From Spirosoma luteum DSM 19990 (GTDB taxonomy: Bacteria; Bacteroidota; Bacteroidia; Cytophagales; Spirosomataceae), in contig NZ_KB893245.1 in assembly GCF_000374065.1 (NCBI RefSeq), positions 992,001 through 1,056,000 on the forward strand: 64,000 nt of DNA, in the 5' to 3' direction. Below, in pieces: positions 2 to 47,263 of this stretch. Each line of letters opens with the position of its first letter. The stretch's first letter is position 1. Made by a program: the position numbers and the translations under genes. Under the pieces are notes generated by a model. It had not been told where the DNA came from. It saw only the letters and a program-made list of their open reading frames with translations, and did no database searches.

Positions 2-397
2 GATCTGACGAATATTACCCGGATGCGGAATGCCTTCGGCAACCGCTTTAAGCTGATGGGCGGTGTGGACACATTGGCACTGGAAGCCCTGTTGCTGGGT
101 TGTGACGGCTGGGTGGGCGGTCTGGTGGACGCCTTCCCACAGGAAACCGTGGCTATTTACAACCTGGCCAAAGCGGGTCAGGTGGCCGAAGCGCTGGAAA
201 TATACCGCTGGTTTATGCCGTTATTGGAACTGGATATTCACCCAAAACTGGTACAATACATTAAACTGGCCGCTCAGGCAACGGGCATCGGTTCGGAACA
301 CGTGCGGGCACCCCGCCTGCCACTCATCGGCGCCGAACGCGAACAGGTGCTGGCTATCATTGAGAAAGCAATGGCGAACCGGCCGGTATTGGTATAA
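2..397 (+). CDS. DapA-family lyase, probable 1-pyrroline-4-hydroxy-2-carboxylate deaminase (5' end missing)
   Basis: Only the C-terminal 131 residues are present; the frame is open from base 2, so the gene starts before the window. The visible part has the C-terminal helices of the dihydrodipicolinate synthase/N-acetylneuraminate lyase family, including the LLGCDGWVGGL stretch that follows the active-site barrel. The catalytic lysine and tyrosine would lie in the missing part. The three functional neighbours downstream are a hydroxyproline epimerase, a FAD amino-acid oxidase and a 2-oxoglutarate semialdehyde dehydrogenase. I infer from them that this member deaminates 1-pyrroline-4-hydroxy-2-carboxylate to 2-oxoglutarate semialdehyde. 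Family membership is well supported; the substrate rests on context. Confidence 0.8.
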   Translation, partial: DLTNITRMRNAFGNRFKLMGGVDTLALEALLLGCDGWVGGLVDAFPQETVAIYNLAKAGQVAEALEIYRWFMPLLELDIHPKLVQYIKLAAQATGIGSEHVRAPRLPLIGAEREQVLAIIEKAMANRPVLV

Positions 398-477
398 AGA
401 GTGAACGTGTGAATGAGTGAAAGAGTGGCTGACACGCCAGCTTTCGCTTACTCACAATTTCGCTCATTCACTTTTTA
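398..477. repeat. Intergenic inverted octamer array (element A)
   Basis: The whole gap between the stop of the DapA-like gene and the epimerase gene is filled. Four tandem 8-base units read AGAGTGAA, CGTGTGAA, TGAGTGAA, AGAGTGGC (398-429). After a spacer of about 10 bases, complementary units run the other way (about 440-477), with several mismatches. It would form a long imperfect hairpin inside the operon. There is no U-run after it, so it does not look like a classical terminator. Confidence 0.75.
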
Positions 478-481
478 AATT

Positions 482-15488: not shown

Positions 15489-16781
15489 GTGCCTGAATCT
15501 TTCCTTTATTTTATCTGGCAGTACCAGTACTTCAATAAGGCCAGCCTTGCCACTACGGATGGCGAAGTAATACAAGTATTGCACACAGGTTTCAGGAACT
15601 ATGATGCCGGTCCCGATTTTACCCACGCCCGCTTGCTCATCAATGAAGTAGAATGGGTAGGTACGGTAGAAATGCACTGCCGTACGTCGGATTGGCTCTC
15701 GCACCGTCACCAGCATGACCGGGCTTACGATAATGTGATTCTGCATGTTGTATGGCAGGATGACCGGTCTACCAATGGTCGCCGGGTAGATCGCACCAAT
15801 GGAACAGCGCTACCAACACTCGAACTAAGCCCCCTTACCGACGTAGCATTGCTAGACCGGTTTCATGCGCTGAATGATGCGGTGGACAGTATCCCCTGTG
15901 CCGGGCAATTCAGGGCTGTGTCACCCCTGCGTATTACATCCATGCTGGATAAAGCTATGCTGCAACGGCTCGAACGAAAAGCAACGGCTGTGCGGCTTGT
16001 GTTTGAGCAAACGAATGGCGACTGGGAAGAAACAGCCTACCGGATGCTGGCCATAAATATGGGGTTTAAAATTAATGCAGACCCTATGGAACAACTCAGT
16101 CGGGCGGTGCCGCTAAAGGCTATTCTGAAACACCGGGATGCATTGCATCAGGTGGAGGCCCTGTTATTCGGTACCGCTGGCTTGCTGGCCCTGGAGGAGG
16201 CCGATGAGTACATTGTTATGTTGCAGCGGGAGTATCGGTTTCTGGCTGCTAAATATTCCCTTGCAGACAGGCAGGTAGAAGCCCATGCCTGGAAATGGGG
16301 ACGGCTACGACCCGCCAATTTTCCAACGCTGCGTTTGGCTCAGCTAGCCCGCTTATTGACTAATCAGGGTAGCTTATTCTCGCTTTTTGCCGATATGATG
16401 GATACCGAAACACTCTTATCGGTCTTGCAGGTACAGCCATCTGCTTACTGGCAATCGCATTATCGATTCGGTAAAACGACGGAGAAGCCTGCGCCAGCAC
16501 TTGGGCAGACTTCGGCTGAGAATATTGTGGTGAATACCGTGGTGCCGTTACTGGCAGCTTACGCGCACCACCGGGGCGAGCCGGCTTACATTGACCGGGC
16601 TATCAGTTTGCTGGAGGGGCTGCCAGCCGAAAAAAATCACCTGACAGATAAATGGAATACGCTGGGGCTAGGTATCCGAACGGCGTTCGATTCGCAGGCC
16701 GCCATTGAACTTCACAATGAATTTTGCGCCGTTAAAAAGTGCCTGAGTTGCCAGGTAGGCGCGGAGTTGTTAAAAAAATGA
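15489..16781 (+). CDS. DUF2851 family protein
   Basis: A 430-residue cytoplasmic protein of the DUF2851 family, found almost only in Bacteroidota and of unknown role. Typical features are the N-terminal ESFLYFIWQYQYFN and FRNYDAGPDFTHARL, the WVGTVEMHCRTSDW strand, and the C-terminal cysteines in CAVKKCLSCQVG, which could bind a metal. The N-terminal part recalls nuclease-like beta-alpha folds, but I cannot show a catalytic set. Its stop codon lies inside the left arm of the hairpin that follows. Confidence 0.85.
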   Translation: MPESFLYFIWQYQYFNKASLATTDGEVIQVLHTGFRNYDAGPDFTHARLLINEVEWVGTVEMHCRTSDWLSHRHQHDRAYDNVILHVVWQDDRSTNGRRVDRTNGTALPTLELSPLTDVALLDRFHALNDAVDSIPCAGQFRAVSPLRITSMLDKAMLQRLERKATAVRLVFEQTNGDWEETAYRMLAINMGFKINADPMEQLSRAVPLKAILKHRDALHQVEALLFGTAGLLALEEADEYIVMLQREYRFLAAKYSLADRQVEAHAWKWGRLRPANFPTLRLAQLARLLTNQGSLFSLFADMMDTETLLSVLQVQPSAYWQSHYRFGKTTEKPAPALGQTSAENIVVNTVVPLLAAYAHHRGEPAYIDRAISLLEGLPAEKNHLTDKWNTLGLGIRTAFDSQAAIELHNEFCAVKKCLSCQVGAELLKK

Positions 16782-16846
16782 TGAGTTATGAATGATGAAT
16801 AGGTTCGGAAGAAACATCGTTCATCATTCATAACTCATCATTTTTT
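16773..16846. terminator. 27-bp perfect hairpin over two convergent stop codons (element C)
   Basis: Left arm 16773-16799 and right arm 16820-16846 are perfectly complementary over 27 bases with a 20-base loop. The arms are built from 7-base units (ATGATGA, GTTATGA, ATGATGA). The outer ends are A6 and T6, so either strand would give a U-tract after the stem. The TGA of the DUF2851 gene lies in the left arm, and the TAA of the Gfo/Idh/MocA gene overlaps the end of the right arm. Confidence 0.9.
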
Positions 16847-19941: not shown

Positions 19942-20076
19942 GATGCACTGAGAGAATAATAATTAATAGTAACCACTTGTATGGTTACCGATAGTGGTTA
20001 AAATGACACGCTTTCTAAACGAGACTACTTATAATAAGCACAATATGTAGTTGTTCTACTACTGTAAAAGAGCAAA

Positions 20077-20125
20077 AGAGTGAACGAGTTGGAACCTATA
20101 GGGTAGGTTTTCACTCGTTCACTCT
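20077..20125. repeat. Intergenic inverted octamer array (element D)
   Basis: A 13-bp perfect stem pairs AGAGTGAACGAGT (20077-20089) with its complement at 20113-20125. An inner stem, AACCTA with TAGGTT, lies in the loop. Degenerate units continue outside (AAAGAGCA on the left). It lies within the operon between susD and the isomerase gene, ending 15 bases from the susD stop, and may set the lower expression of the enzymes relative to SusC/SusD. Confidence 0.75.
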
Positions 20126-20140
20126 TCGTGCATTCAGTTA

Positions 20141-43526: not shown

Positions 43527-44117
43527 TTACCGCAATCTCACGCGCCAATCGGAGGCTTTCCCGAAAAACCAGAGAGCCAGCGCCGTGGCGTACTGGTAAA
43601 AATCCGTTGGGTGAATGAGTGAGTAAAACGCTTCTGCTTTGGTAGCCAGCCCCATCATCATAGCGGCCAACACGATCCAAAGCCCTCGTTTGTTGCGTTG
43701 AAGTAATGAAAACACCGCCAGTAGTACCAAAACCAATATACCCAGTGATGGTACGATAGGGGTGAAAACGCGTACGCGGGGTAATAGTAATGAAGTAAAC
43801 AGAAATAAACCAAACGCTACCGTGGCAACAAATGGAAACAAGGAAAGTGTACGCTGATTAAGCAATGCATATACTGCCGACACCACGCATACAATACCCA
43901 GCGTATCGGACAGAATAATCATGGAACGATGCAACGGTTCCAGCGATTCGTTTCCCGAAAAGCGGATCACTCCCATCAGAGCGGCCAGGGAAATGGTTAA
44001 GAAAAAGAATCCCCAAAGCAGTCGGTTGAGCAGGGGAATACGTCCGAAAAAGTGCCAGAACACCCCAACGCCCACTCCGGCCAGAACAGAGCCAGAAAGG
44101 ATATGCGAAAAAATCAT
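43527..44117 (-). CDS. Multi-pass membrane protein, unknown
   Basis: A 196-residue protein with six or seven hydrophobic segments and short basic loops. Starts at 44153 and 44117 are open; 44117 keeps clear of the sucD promoter box. It shows no transport or enzyme motif. It ends 14 bases before the likely topoisomerase IB start, so the two may be co-transcribed. I do not recognise the family. Confidence 0.6.
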   Translation of the reverse strand: MIFSHILSGSVLAGVGVGVFWHFFGRIPLLNRLLWGFFFLTISLAALMGVIRFSGNESLEPLHRSMIILSDTLGIVCVVSAVYALLNQRTLSLFPFVATVAFGLFLFTSLLLPRVRVFTPIVPSLGILVLVLLAVFSLLQRNKRGLWIVLAAMMMGLATKAEAFYSLIHPTDFYQYATALALWFFGKASDWRVRLR

Positions 44118-44140
44118 CACGTAATTTAGGAAGTTTCGGC

Positions 44141-44148
44141 TACTTTTG
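44141..44148 (+). promoter_or_regulatory. Minus-7 element upstream of sucD
   Basis: TACTTTTG matches TAnnTTTG. It lies 117 bases before the sucD start, which would leave a leader of about 110 bases. No good minus-33 box is seen. Confidence 0.35.
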
Positions 44149-44265
44149 CCCAACTTTCTACCAGAAGCAGGAAGGGCCGATAAACGACTAAAGATAGCTG
44201 GTTAAATGCTATTTTTCGGCTTCCTTCCGTATGTCCGTGTTGCCAACGATTTCCAAATTCCTGTT

Positions 44266-45141
44266 ATGTCTGTTCTAGTTAACAAAGATTCAAAAATTAT
44301 CGTCCAGGGCTTCACCGGCTCAGAAGGCAGTTTTCATGCTCAGCAGATGATTGAATACGGCACTAACGTTGTTGGTGGGGTAACGCCGGGAAAAGGAGGG
44401 CAAACGCACCTCGACCGCCCTGTTTTCAATACAGTTCAGCAGGCTGTTGATCAGGCTGGCGCCAATGTATCCATCATTTTTGTGCCGCCTGCTTTTGCTG
44501 CCGATGCTATTATGGAGGCTGCAGAAGCGGGTATAAATGTGATTATCTGCATTACGGAAGGTATTCCAACGGAAGATATGGTAGCGGTGAAAAACTACCT
44601 GAACGACAAAGATGTGACGCTGATCGGGCCCAACTGCCCCGGTGTCATGACCGCCGAAGAATGTAAAGTAGGAATCATGCCCGGCTTTATTTTCAAGAAA
44701 GGGCGTATCGGAATCGTTTCCAAGTCGGGTACATTAACCTACGAAGCTGTTGACCAGCTTACCAAAGCTGGTCTTGGACAATCGACAGCTATTGGTATCG
44801 GTGGCGACCCAATTATTGGTACCACTACCAAGCAGGCAGTTGAACTTCTTATGAACGATCCGGAAACCGATGCTATCGTTATGATTGGCGAAATAGGTGG
44901 CGGCATGGAAGCAGAGGCTGCTAACTGGATCAAGGCTGATGGCAATCGTAAACCCGTTGTTGGTTTCATTGCCGGACAAACGGCCCCCAAGGGTCGTCGG
45001 ATGGGCCATGCCGGTGCTATTGTTGGTGGCGCAGATGATACAGCAGCCGCCAAAATGGCTATTATGCGGGAGTGTGGTATCCACGTAGTTGAATCACCCG
45101 CTCTTATCGGTGATACAATGCTGAAGGCGCTGGGGAAATAA
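44266..45141 (+). CDS. sucD: Succinyl-CoA synthetase alpha subunit
   Basis: A 291-residue subunit. The CoA-binding N-terminal domain reads [22 protein letters not shown]. The phosphohistidine loop is [13 protein letters not shown] near the C-terminus. The start at 44266 ([10 protein letters not shown]) is standard; 20 more codons upstream are open but not family-like. With the beta subunit, which is not in the window, it makes ATP or GTP from succinyl-CoA in the TCA cycle. Repeat element F follows the stop. Confidence 0.96.
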
Positions 45142-45148
45142 ATTCTAA

Positions 45149-45270
45149 AGAGCGAAAGAGCGAATGAATGAAAGAGCGAAAGAGCGGCCAACGATAACCA
45201 GAATAACTAGTGACTATTTCCGTGACGCTCTTTCACTCTTTTTTACTCTTTCACTTTTTTACTCTTTCGC
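45149..45270. repeat. Inverted octamer array partly inside a coding region (element F)
   Basis: Five 8-base units (AGAGCGAA, AGAGCGAA, TGAATGAA, AGAGCGAA, AGAGCGGC) fill 45149-45188. Facing units (CGCTCTTT, CACTCTTT, TTTACTCT and similar) fill about 45226-45270. The inner stem, 45173-45186 with 45226-45239, has a single G-T wobble. The ATG of the DUF4271 gene lies within the left array, and the right array is translated as its hydrophobic signal sequence. Confidence 0.8.
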
Positions 45271-46384
45271 CACTGCCCAACCTCGCCAGACAGGTATTGG
45301 ACCGGGTGAAACATACTATCCCGTTCACAATTTTCACGACGACTTTCAGGTGTACGACGAAAGGGCAAAAGCTTACGTACCCTACATCGTTGAGAAACAT
45401 GCCGACCAAACAGCCCTGAGCGTATATGTGGACCTGGAGAGTAATCGGCACTACAGCCTGCTCATTGCAACCCGGCAAGACGGATACCTGTTTATCAACG
45501 CTGCCCTTAAACGAAAACTCCGTGCCGAACGCTGGCAGGTACTAAACATCGATAGCCTGTATAAGGTCTATCGTCAGCCAGAACTATTCCTCACCATCTA
45601 CGGCAGTCCCGGCCTGGACAATAAACAATTATTTATTGGTTACCCAAAATCCGCAACGCAGACACCCGTTCTGTTGCGGGATGATAATTTGAGTGTACGC
45701 CCCCGTCCCAGCACTATATACAAAGACTTTCTGGGACTGGGTTTATTGTTTTTATTGACCACCCACAGTTTTCTGTTTACATTTTATCGGCGCGCTTTTT
45801 TGCGATTTTATAACCTGCGTGATCTATTATCTGTCCGGTCACAGGACGAATCGTTTCTAATTAATCGTCCATTGAGTGGTGCCAATACCCTTTTTGCCCT
45901 CAATCTGAGTTTTGTCATTGCTTATCTGATTGTCTTCTTGCAGAGCCTGAACTTAGCGGTGTTTACATCGGGGACATTGTTAATAACGGGGCAAAATATA
46001 GGTGGGTTGTTGAGTGAGTTTTTTCTGCTGAGTGGTGTCACCTTCTTAAGTCTTCTGGGTAAGTATATCTCTCTGGAGGTGATGGGGGGGCTGTATAAGT
46101 TGCAGGAGGTGGTCAACATTCACTATTTCAAAATACTACAGTCATCCCTATTATTTTTTACGTTTCTAACTCTTCTACTATCCATACTGACGTACAATAC
46201 CTGGGTCGCATCATGGTCGCAGGAAGTCTTGTTGGTGTCAGTAGTTATGTTTTATGCTGCCCGCTTAACCCTGCTATACTTCGTCATACGTAGCCTTGAG
46301 CCTATCAAAAATCTTTATTTATTTTCGTACCTTTGTATCGTCGAATTGATTCCACTAATCATTGGTTTGCGTTTTGCGCTATGA
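45164..46384 (+). CDS. DUF4271 membrane protein with repeat-derived signal peptide
   Basis: A 406-residue protein. A signal peptide with core ALSLFFTLSLFYSFA ends near ATA-Q; it and the start codon are encoded by repeat element F. A periplasmic part of about 150 residues follows (to about residue 185). The C-terminal half is DUF4271 with about seven membrane helices, including LGLLFLLTTHSFLFTFYRR and LYFVIRSLEPIKNLYLFSYLC. DUF4271 genes commonly precede hemD in Bacteroidota, as here (75 bases). The function is unknown. No other in-frame ATG gives a signal peptide. Confidence 0.82.
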   Translation: MNERAKERPTITRITSDYFRDALSLFFTLSLFYSFATAQPRQTGIGPGETYYPVHNFHDDFQVYDERAKAYVPYIVEKHADQTALSVYVDLESNRHYSLLIATRQDGYLFINAALKRKLRAERWQVLNIDSLYKVYRQPELFLTIYGSPGLDNKQLFIGYPKSATQTPVLLRDDNLSVRPRPSTIYKDFLGLGLLFLLTTHSFLFTFYRRAFLRFYNLRDLLSVRSQDESFLINRPLSGANTLFALNLSFVIAYLIVFLQSLNLAVFTSGTLLITGQNIGGLLSEFFLLSGVTFLSLLGKYISLEVMGGLYKLQEVVNIHYFKILQSSLLFFTFLTLLLSILTYNTWVASWSQEVLLVSVVMFYAARLTLLYFVIRSLEPIKNLYLFSYLCIVELIPLIIGLRFAL

Positions 46385-46459: not shown

Positions 46460-47263
46460 ATGACCCCGAGTAACGATTCAATGAACGAGACAAGCATGCA
46501 ACCCGCCGAAGCCAGGATCACGAAAGTAAACCGGCTCTTAGTGTCCCAATCTCGACCCGCCGACGATAAATCTCCTTATTTTGATTTAGCTAGCAAGTAC
46601 AATATCCAGATTGAGTTTCGCCCGTTTATCCAGATTCAGGGTGAGTCGTTTAAGGATTTTCGTCGTCAGAAAATCAATATTCTGGCCCATACCGCTATTA
46701 TTTTCACCAGCCGAAATGCCATAGATCACTTTTTTCGTATTTGTCAGGAAGGACGCGTCGATGTGCCTGCAGATATGAAGTATTTCTGTATTTCGGAACA
46801 GACAGCTAACTATCTACAGAAATACATCGTTATTCGGAAGCGCAAGATTTTCAACGGTACGAAGACTGCAACCGAACTGTTTGACTTAATCAAGAAGCAT
46901 AAGAGCGAAAAGTTCCTGTTTCCCTGTTCAAACATCCGTCGAAATGATATTCCTGAGTTTATGGATACAAGTGGTCTTCATTTTACGGAGGCTGAGATGT
47001 ACGAAACTGTTTCCACTAACCTGTCAGACCTGGAAATCAGTAGTTACGATATAATTGCCCTTTTTAGCCCATCAGGTGTAAACTCGTTACTTGTTAATTT
47101 TCCCGATTTCGATCAGAACGGAACACGTATCGCTGCTTTCGGGCCTACTACTGCCAAGGCCGTTATTGAAGCGGGCCTGACACTTGATATTGAAGCTCCG
47201 CTTCCCAACGCGCCATCTATGACGGGGGCTTTGGATTTGTACCTTAAAAAGACCAACCCGTAA
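46460..47263 (+). CDS. hemD: Uroporphyrinogen-III synthase family protein
   Basis: A 267-residue protein of the HemD family with the two-lobe alpha/beta layout. Seen are IIFTSRNAIDHFF in lobe one, and IIALFSPSGVNSLLVNF with IAAFGPTTAKAVIEAG in lobe two. These strands line the cleft where hydroxymethylbilane is closed to uroporphyrinogen III. HemD is weakly conserved and Bacteroidota copies are divergent. In-frame ATGs at 46460, 46481 and 46496 compete; the conserved part begins at about VNRLLVSQ. It lies between DUF4271 and porP. Confidence 0.85.
   Translation: MTPSNDSMNETSMQPAEARITKVNRLLVSQSRPADDKSPYFDLASKYNIQIEFRPFIQIQGESFKDFRRQKINILAHTAIIFTSRNAIDHFFRICQEGRVDVPADMKYFCISEQTANYLQKYIVIRKRKIFNGTKTATELFDLIKKHKSEKFLFPCSNIRRNDIPEFMDTSGLHFTEAEMYETVSTNLSDLEISSYDIIALFSPSGVNSLLVNFPDFDQNGTRIAAFGPTTAKAVIEAGLTLDIEAPLPNAPSMTGALDLYLKKTNP

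What the first reader, a model, noticed from the sequence alone, without database searches (positions are those of the whole stretch)
45149..45270. Hairpin repeat recruited as a signal peptide
Seen directly: the DUF4271 gene's ATG (45164) lies in the left octamer array, and the right array is read in frame as ALSLFFTLSLFYSFAT, followed by a cleavage-like ATAQ. The protein needs a signal because about 150 residues with a soluble look follow before the membrane helices. So one piece of DNA appears to be an RNA hairpin and the code of an export signal. The unit CTCTTTCA reads Leu-Phe-His, Ser-Leu-Ser or Ala-Leu-Ser-Leu-Phe by frame, so hydrophobicity follows from the repeat itself. A period of 8 also shifts frame at each unit.
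Basis: partly seen in the sequence, partly recalled or inferred. Interest (0 to 1): 0.78.

Follow-up and report, generated by a model that had tools for sequence, protein, structure and literature searches.

The report
Hairpin arm encodes a signal peptide
In soil bacteria of the genus Spirosoma, a repeat that can fold into a hairpin between two genes also appears to be read as the export signal of the next gene's membrane protein, so one stretch of DNA seems to do two jobs and the signal changes when the repeat changes.

Summary
An octamer hairpin (45145-45270) starts 4 nt after sucD; the DUF4271 ATG (45164) is in its left arm and the right arm reads ALSLFFTLSLFYSF, then ATA|Q. The fold is stable (z -4.9). 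The next in-frame start is GTG 45350, inside the conserved protein.

It is not peculiar to this genome. In 27 of 34 Spirosoma genomes with the gene, and 9 of 25 sampled genomes of other genera, the leader lies in the hairpin's right arm. In 24 of those 27 with octamer arms, an in-frame start precedes the right array in the coding frame in 23, in the shifted frames in 11 and 6. The 27 leaders are more hydrophobic (2.35) than other hairpin arms of this genome (1.01) or pure CTCTTTCR arrays (1.44-1.65): the repeat supplies a rough signal, apparently improved by selection. Some relatives have ordinary leaders; one uses another repeat, abundant only in its own genome among 36.

Translation, cleavage and any RNA role are inferred. 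A Yersinia palindromic element in a predicted signal peptide is a precedent: new variant of a known kind.

The parts
44206..45141 (+). sucD (succinyl-CoA ligase alpha subunit; longest ORF, start not checked), the gene in front; the hairpin begins 4 nt after it
   Evidence: ORF; Pfam CoA_binding, Ligase_CoA, Succ_CoA_lig
45145..45186 (+). left arm: purine-rich octamer array (AAAGAGCG-type)
   Evidence: TRF; pairs with the right arm
45164..45166 (+). ATG, the only in-frame start in the open frame upstream of the right array
   Evidence: one start, -38 codons from Q; next in-frame start GTG 45350
45187..45225 (+). loop region, read as residues ~9-21, the rest of the n-region
   Evidence: fold; translation
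45226..45270 (+). right arm: pyrimidine-rich octamer array (CTCTTTCA-type, with two T-rich units)
   Evidence: TRF; fold; letters
45227..45268 (+). codons of the hydrophobic core ALSLFFTLSLFYSF (residues 22-35) of the predicted signal peptide
   Evidence: translation; best 12-residue mean 1.82
45269..45280 (+). A-T-A|Q, predicted type I signal peptidase site with Q at +1
   Evidence: translation; Q at this place in 34 of 34 Spirosoma rows; Q-rule, abstract of PMC10653852
45164..46384 (+). DUF4271 membrane protein gene
   Evidence: Pfam PF14093 E 1.3e-15
46460..47263 (+). hemD (uroporphyrinogen-III synthase), next gene
   Evidence: Pfam PF02602 E 2.2e-39

Best explanation
A genome-wide family of octamer hairpins (left arm AAAGAGYG repeats, right arm CTCTTTCR repeats) sits in gaps between genes in Spirosoma. 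The copy between sucD and the DUF4271 gene is also the 5' end of that gene. Ribosomes start in the left arm or the loop (ATG 45164 here) and read what follows as a polar n-region. They then read the right arm as the hydrophobic core of a Sec signal peptide, which type I signal peptidase cuts before a glutamine. This exports a beta-rich domain ahead of the membrane helices. Purine codons on one arm and their complements on the other give a polar stretch followed by a hydrophobic one almost for free, and selection on this frame has raised the hydrophobicity further. Shown by sequence: the hairpin, the frame continuity, the hydrophobicity, the Q site and the spread across species. Inferred: translation from this start, export, cleavage, and any RNA role of the hairpin (my guess is a weak terminator or 3'-end barrier for sucD, opened by translating ribosomes).
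For: Hairpin and ORF verified. No other in-frame start before GTG 45350, by which point invariant residues G46 and P47 have passed. By the stated rule, 27 of 34 Spirosoma and 9 of 25 other-genus genomes have the leader in the right arm; the 16 other-genus rows that fail pair 8-25 of 54 nt (threshold 27). A start precedes the right array in 23 of 24 in the coding frame, 11 and 6 of 24 in the shifted frames. Best 12-residue mean: 2.35 +/- 0.43 in the 27 arm leaders (coding frame highest of three in 23 of 27), 2.31 in all 34, 1.01 +/- 0.70 in 165 frames of 55 other right arms of this genome (34 leaders versus 165 frames, Mann-Whitney p 8e-17). Q follows in 34 of 34, with A or G before it in 33 of 34. 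G017's leader lies in a TTTTCAT-type hairpin, and G017 is the only one of 36 genomes with more than two matches of that repeat (22, three of them at this locus).
Against: No protein or RNA data. G032's open frame has no start at all: its ATG frame reads the arm in another frame and stops. Six of 34 have ordinary or decayed leaders, and G005's leader arrays lie outside the main stem. In 7 of 34 no ATG lies upstream of the hydrophobic core, so GTG or TTG would have to serve; G032 has no start. Two genomes counted as met have weak folds (G023 z -2.9, G074 z -2.6, 50 shuffles each). Leaders outside the arms are about as hydrophobic (2.16 in the other 7 Spirosoma), so hydrophobicity shows selection for a signal, not for the hairpin. 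9 of 55 other arms also have a frame with a start and a mean of 1.8 or more. The species are related, so p-values are too small. Compatible double changes in 12 close pairs never outnumber broken pairs.
Confidence: 0.82

Rival explanations
1. The arm is an untranslated spacer; the true start is downstream and the open frame is a by-product of an array without stop codons. Many other octamer hairpins of this genome end just before an ordinary start.
For: 68 of 165 frames of other right arms are open back to a start codon; 45 of 109 sampled arms abut the start of an ORF of at least 90 codons.
Against: The next in-frame start is 45350, after invariant residues G46 and P47. Openness to a start in the coding frame exceeds that of the shifted frames, and hydrophobicity exceeds that of other arms.
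Confidence: 0.06
2. The hydrophobic segment is an uncleaved N-terminal anchor, not a cleaved signal peptide.
For: The n-region in this genome is long (21 residues, net charge about +1) and no signal-peptide predictor was available.
Against: Q at +1 in 34 of 34 with A or G at -1 in 33 of 34, as the Bacteroidetes Q-rule expects.
Confidence: 0.12
3. It is chiefly a phase-variable switch: octamer loss or gain moves the start out of frame and turns export on and off.
For: A shift of frame leaves no in-frame start in 13 of 24 or 18 of 24 genomes, by direction; G032 is off frame in its assembly.
Against: 23 of 24 assemblies are on frame. No strain-level data. Right arrays hold only 1-5 recognisable units where any are found, short for fast slippage.
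Confidence: 0.12
4. An ordinary leader whose T-rich codons resemble the array by chance, with no hairpin family involved.
For: Hydrophobic codons are T-rich; outgroup leaders with no array exist.
Against: 162 array matches genome-wide against 1 for the control; a matching left array; fold z -4.9 here and down to -12.8 in relatives with the leader in the arm.
Confidence: 0.01

Closest known systems
RU-2 / YAPL palindromic element forming part of the predicted signal peptide of YPO1552 in Yersinia (Delihas 2007, PMC2759123 and PMC2229807; passages seen)
   Different: There a ~168-bp MITE-like element. Here arms of octamer arrays, the same gene position in 27 of 34 Spirosoma genomes, and arm sequence that turns over between species.
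Rickettsia palindromic elements (RPE) in protein-coding genes (review PMC10969869, passages seen; the original paper of 2000 not read)
   Same: Palindromic DNA that is also coding sequence.
   Different: RPEs are ~150-bp elements in many unrelated genes. Here one gene's N-terminus, built of 8-nt tandem units.
GCAGA-repeat leader peptide and terminator of the pil1 locus in Streptococcus gallolyticus (PMC3894217, passages seen)
   Same: Short tandem repeat whose unit is not a multiple of three, translated next to a stem-loop; slippage changes the frame.
   Different: There a separate leader peptide controls a terminator by attenuation; here the repeat is the stem and encodes the start of the protein itself. 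No phase variation shown here.
REP elements (PMC3733652, start of abstract seen in a listing)
   Same: Dispersed extragenic palindromes, hypothesised to terminate transcription or stabilise mRNA.
   Different: REPs are 20-40 bp with a tagged end; here the arms are tandem octamers. The tags and REP-linked transposase genes were not searched for.

Membership tests
Sec / SPase I signal peptide with Bacteroidetes Q-rule | positive or polar n-region then hydrophobic core | tested here: met
   Residues 2-21 mostly polar (net charge about +1, long), 22-35 hydrophobic; best 12-residue mean 1.82
Sec / SPase I signal peptide with Bacteroidetes Q-rule | small residues at -3/-1 and Q at +1 | tested here: met
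   A-T-A|Q; Q in 34 of 34, A/G at -1 in 33 of 34 (site picked by a rule seeking [AGSPC]Q)
Sec / SPase I signal peptide with Bacteroidetes Q-rule | export and cleavage | not testable with these tools
   No experiment; no signal-peptide predictor available
MITE-like palindromic element read as protein (RPE, RU-2) | dispersed family of related palindromes in the genome | tested here: met
   84+78 array matches, control 0+1
MITE-like palindromic element read as protein (RPE, RU-2) | terminal inverted repeats with target-site duplication and a transposase source | not tested
   No empty-site comparison made; arms vary in length and unit
MITE-like palindromic element read as protein (RPE, RU-2) | in-frame fusion with a host gene | tested here: met
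   Coding frame open to a start in 23 of 24, shifted frames 11 and 6
Intrinsic terminator | GC-rich stem with short loop followed by a T run | tested here: inconclusive
   No terminator-like site at the hairpin, but the scan allows loops of 3-8 nt only
Known Rfam RNA | match above gathering score | tested here: not met
   Nine matches, all far below gathering score, all to microRNA or snoRNA families
Repeat-based phase-variable gene | repeat-number variation within a strain or species switches expression | not testable with these tools
   One genome per species held; frame effect computed only

The most novel reading that the evidence does not exclude
The export signal of an old conserved membrane protein is rewritten by a genome-wide non-coding hairpin family. 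Each lineage's leader takes the unit ('dialect') of its own genome's hairpins, and arm-to-arm copying within the hairpin supplies new codons. The signal peptide thus evolves as a nucleic-acid structure first and as a peptide second, possibly with on/off switching by octamer slippage.
Probability: 0.25. Interest if true: 0.85.

Novelty: new variant of a known kind. Interest (0 to 1): 0.64.

Why it matters
It is a case, found across a genus and in neighbouring genera, of a folded dispersed repeat that appears to serve as a working protein-targeting signal. It makes testable the idea that signal peptides, having loose sequence needs, can be taken over and replaced by repeats. Purine/pyrimidine hairpins naturally encode 'polar then hydrophobic', the grammar of a signal peptide. 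It also warns gene finders: in this genus true starts can lie inside hairpin arms, while many other hairpins end just before an ordinary start.

Tried and rejected
Rfam gave only sub-threshold microRNA and snoRNA families. Promoter and terminator scans found nothing at the hairpin. A PDB fold search of the model gave no match at E <= 0.001, best 7.5e-3. The genome's A- versus T-type octamer share did not predict the locus's own (Spearman 0.28, p 0.17, 25 genomes), which speaks against a fine-grained 'dialect'. The six Spirosoma genomes without any array leader have fewer octamers (4, 8, 10, 11, 11, 78 against 4-548 in the other 28; p 6e-4), but only 4 phylogenetically independent pairs exist (31 of 34 genomes on the tree); 1.2 to 3.0 of the 4 go the expected way, by cut-off, not significant. 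Arm-to-arm correction: in 12 close pairs compatible double changes (0-7) never outnumber broken pairs (2-8), so it is not shown. Hairpin orientation: 22 tandem, 4 divergent, 2 convergent of 28, against 188/65/40 for gaps of 60-400 nt; the small tandem excess was not tested and the gene calls were crude. Other genes with hairpin-coded leaders in this genome: in 109 oriented arms DUF4271 was the only clear case; nine other rows without an abutting start were not resolved one by one. One search (genome contigs) found only one relative. Literature searches listed no paper that, by title or start of abstract, reports these octamer hairpins or DUF4271's leader; several listings were capped at 10-20 of hundreds, the two papers holding 'DUF4271' are on animals and were not read, and subscription papers are not held.

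Full report
What is there. The window lies in a genome of 6.6 Mb. Its nearest relative in the same genus, G025, has the gene on a contig of 97,461 bases, the length of NZ_KB893433.1, Spirosoma spitsbergense DSM 19989; so I take the genus to be Spirosoma. Four bases after the sucD stop (45141) a hairpin region begins: AAAGAGCG-type units at 45145-45186, a loop, CTCTTTCA-type units at 45226-45270. It folds at -39 kcal/mol, z -4.9, better than all of 200 shuffles. The DUF4271 ORF (Pfam E 1.3e-15) starts at 45164 inside the left arm and reads the right arm as ALSLFFTLSLFYSF, then ATA and Q39.

The hairpin family. The two-unit pattern with up to one mismatch matches 162 places in this genome, against 1 for the reversed control, and is present in 36 of 36 genus genomes, in 4 to 548 places (controls 0-4). 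Of 28 distinct hairpins in the sample, 23 have no more than 15 nt between the hairpin and the called gene on either side (overlaps counted, crude gene calls); 22 lie between co-directional genes. Behind 56 oriented right arms, 25 frames stay open for at least 100 codons, and in 20 of them a start codon lies within 4 codons of the arm's end. DUF4271 is the one clear exception. The other four are L055-, which runs back over sucD, and L077+, L078- and L080+, which were not resolved.

Relatives. The gene is found in 34 of 36 genus genomes; the two misses are 80 and 82% complete. In the family sample it is in 149 of 150. I read from the sucD end to the Q site in all 34 plus 25 genomes of other genera, hand-picked from the family list (in five of the 25 sucD was not recognised and 170 nt were used; for four no z was computed). 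The rule was: at least 27 of the 54 nt before the site paired upstream, and either two or more octamers in each arm or fold z <= -5 (z from 50 shuffles). 27 of 34 Spirosoma genomes meet it (24 by octamers, 3 by z: G025, G001, G017), and 9 of 25 others. The thresholds were set after seeing the data. The seven Spirosoma that fail are G005 (octamer leader outside the main stem), G015, G008 and G013 (ordinary leader; another short stem lies upstream), G010, G007 and G006 (no recognisable right octamers). On a 51-row tree of the mature protein (31 of the 34 Spirosoma, 20 others) the trait needs 11 changes. Such counts cannot tell gain from loss; since array leaders also occur in neighbouring genera (for example G094, G109, G110), an old origin with several losses is my reading, by eye.

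Evidence that the arm is translated. First, frame: in the 24 of those 27 with two or more right octamers, a start codon lies upstream of the right array without an intervening stop in the coding frame in 23, in the shifted frames in 11 and 6. Second, hydrophobicity: the best 12-residue mean is 2.35 +/- 0.43 in the 27 arm leaders (coding frame highest in 23) and 2.16 in the other 7 (highest in 2); it is 1.01 +/- 0.70 in 165 frames of 55 other arms of this genome and 1.44-1.65 in pure CTCTTTCR arrays, but 2.28 and 2.57 in the two pure TTTTCAT-type arrays tried. In the window's own genome the three frames are nearly equal (1.82, 1.92, 1.82), so there the array alone explains most of it. Nine of the 55 other arms also have a frame with a start and a mean of 1.8 or more: ready-made leader-like frames are not rare. 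Third, the Q site: Q in 34 of 34, A or G before it in 33 of 34, matching the Q-rule (abstract of PMC10653852). These counts are not independent across related species.

Turnover. G000 and G025 share 92% of the mature protein, yet their intergenic stretch aligns at 52%: G025 has an extra block in both arms, the right copy falling in the leader. G014 and G034 share a 15-nt block in the left arm whose complement is present only in G014's right arm (five codons). G017's leader uses a TTTTCAT-type hairpin; G017 holds 22 matches to that repeat (three at this locus), the other 35 genomes 0-2; it also holds 95 octamer matches. This suggests that the leader is drawn from the hairpins current in its genome. 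A finer test (A- versus T-type octamers) was not significant, and arm-to-arm copying was not shown.

How it probably works. Complementary purine and pyrimidine arms encode polar and hydrophobic residues respectively, so a hairpin read through from its left arm gives a crude signal peptide. Export is needed because a beta-rich stretch (51-161) precedes the membrane helices in the model. A hairpin over the start codon would hinder initiation unless ribosomes finishing sucD, 22 nt upstream, re-open it; this coupling is inference. No standard terminator was found at the hairpin, though the scan allows only short loops.

What is known. [quoted passage not shown] The present case differs in unit, in spread across a genus, and in turnover. 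Hence a new variant of a known kind.

Noticed in passing
G032:C1, DUF4271 leader (loci L006, L107): The open frame of the mature protein has no start codon; the upstream ATG frame enters the hairpin arm in another frame and stops just past a run of nine T. Either an assembly error or an off-frame variant.
   Followed up: partly
window 394-478, 1483-1556, 20065-20129: Other octamer hairpins; the first two fill the gap between co-directional genes from stop codon to ATG.
   Followed up: partly
window 16773-16846: Perfect 27-nt inverted repeat with ATGATGA-like units, 20-nt loop.
   Followed up: no
L103 (G025), L104/L105 (G014/G034), L111, L114, L117, L118: 15-20 nt blocks inside the hairpins, some recurring in several species (for example GTGCCGCAACGGATGTTGAA), as if hairpins were modular.
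   Followed up: no
L120, L122, L126 (G015, G008, G013): A different short stem (GCCGAAA...TTTCGGC, then T's) sits before the ordinary leader, the ATG lying right after the T's.
   Followed up: no
L077 + 1556-1588; L080 + 1500-1532; L078 - 1492-1524: Right arms with a long open frame and no start for 12-17 codons; possible further coding uses or antisense frames.
   Followed up: no
window 43527-44153 (-): DUF6962 protein (Pfam E 1.2e-7) on the opposite strand upstream of sucD.
   Followed up: no
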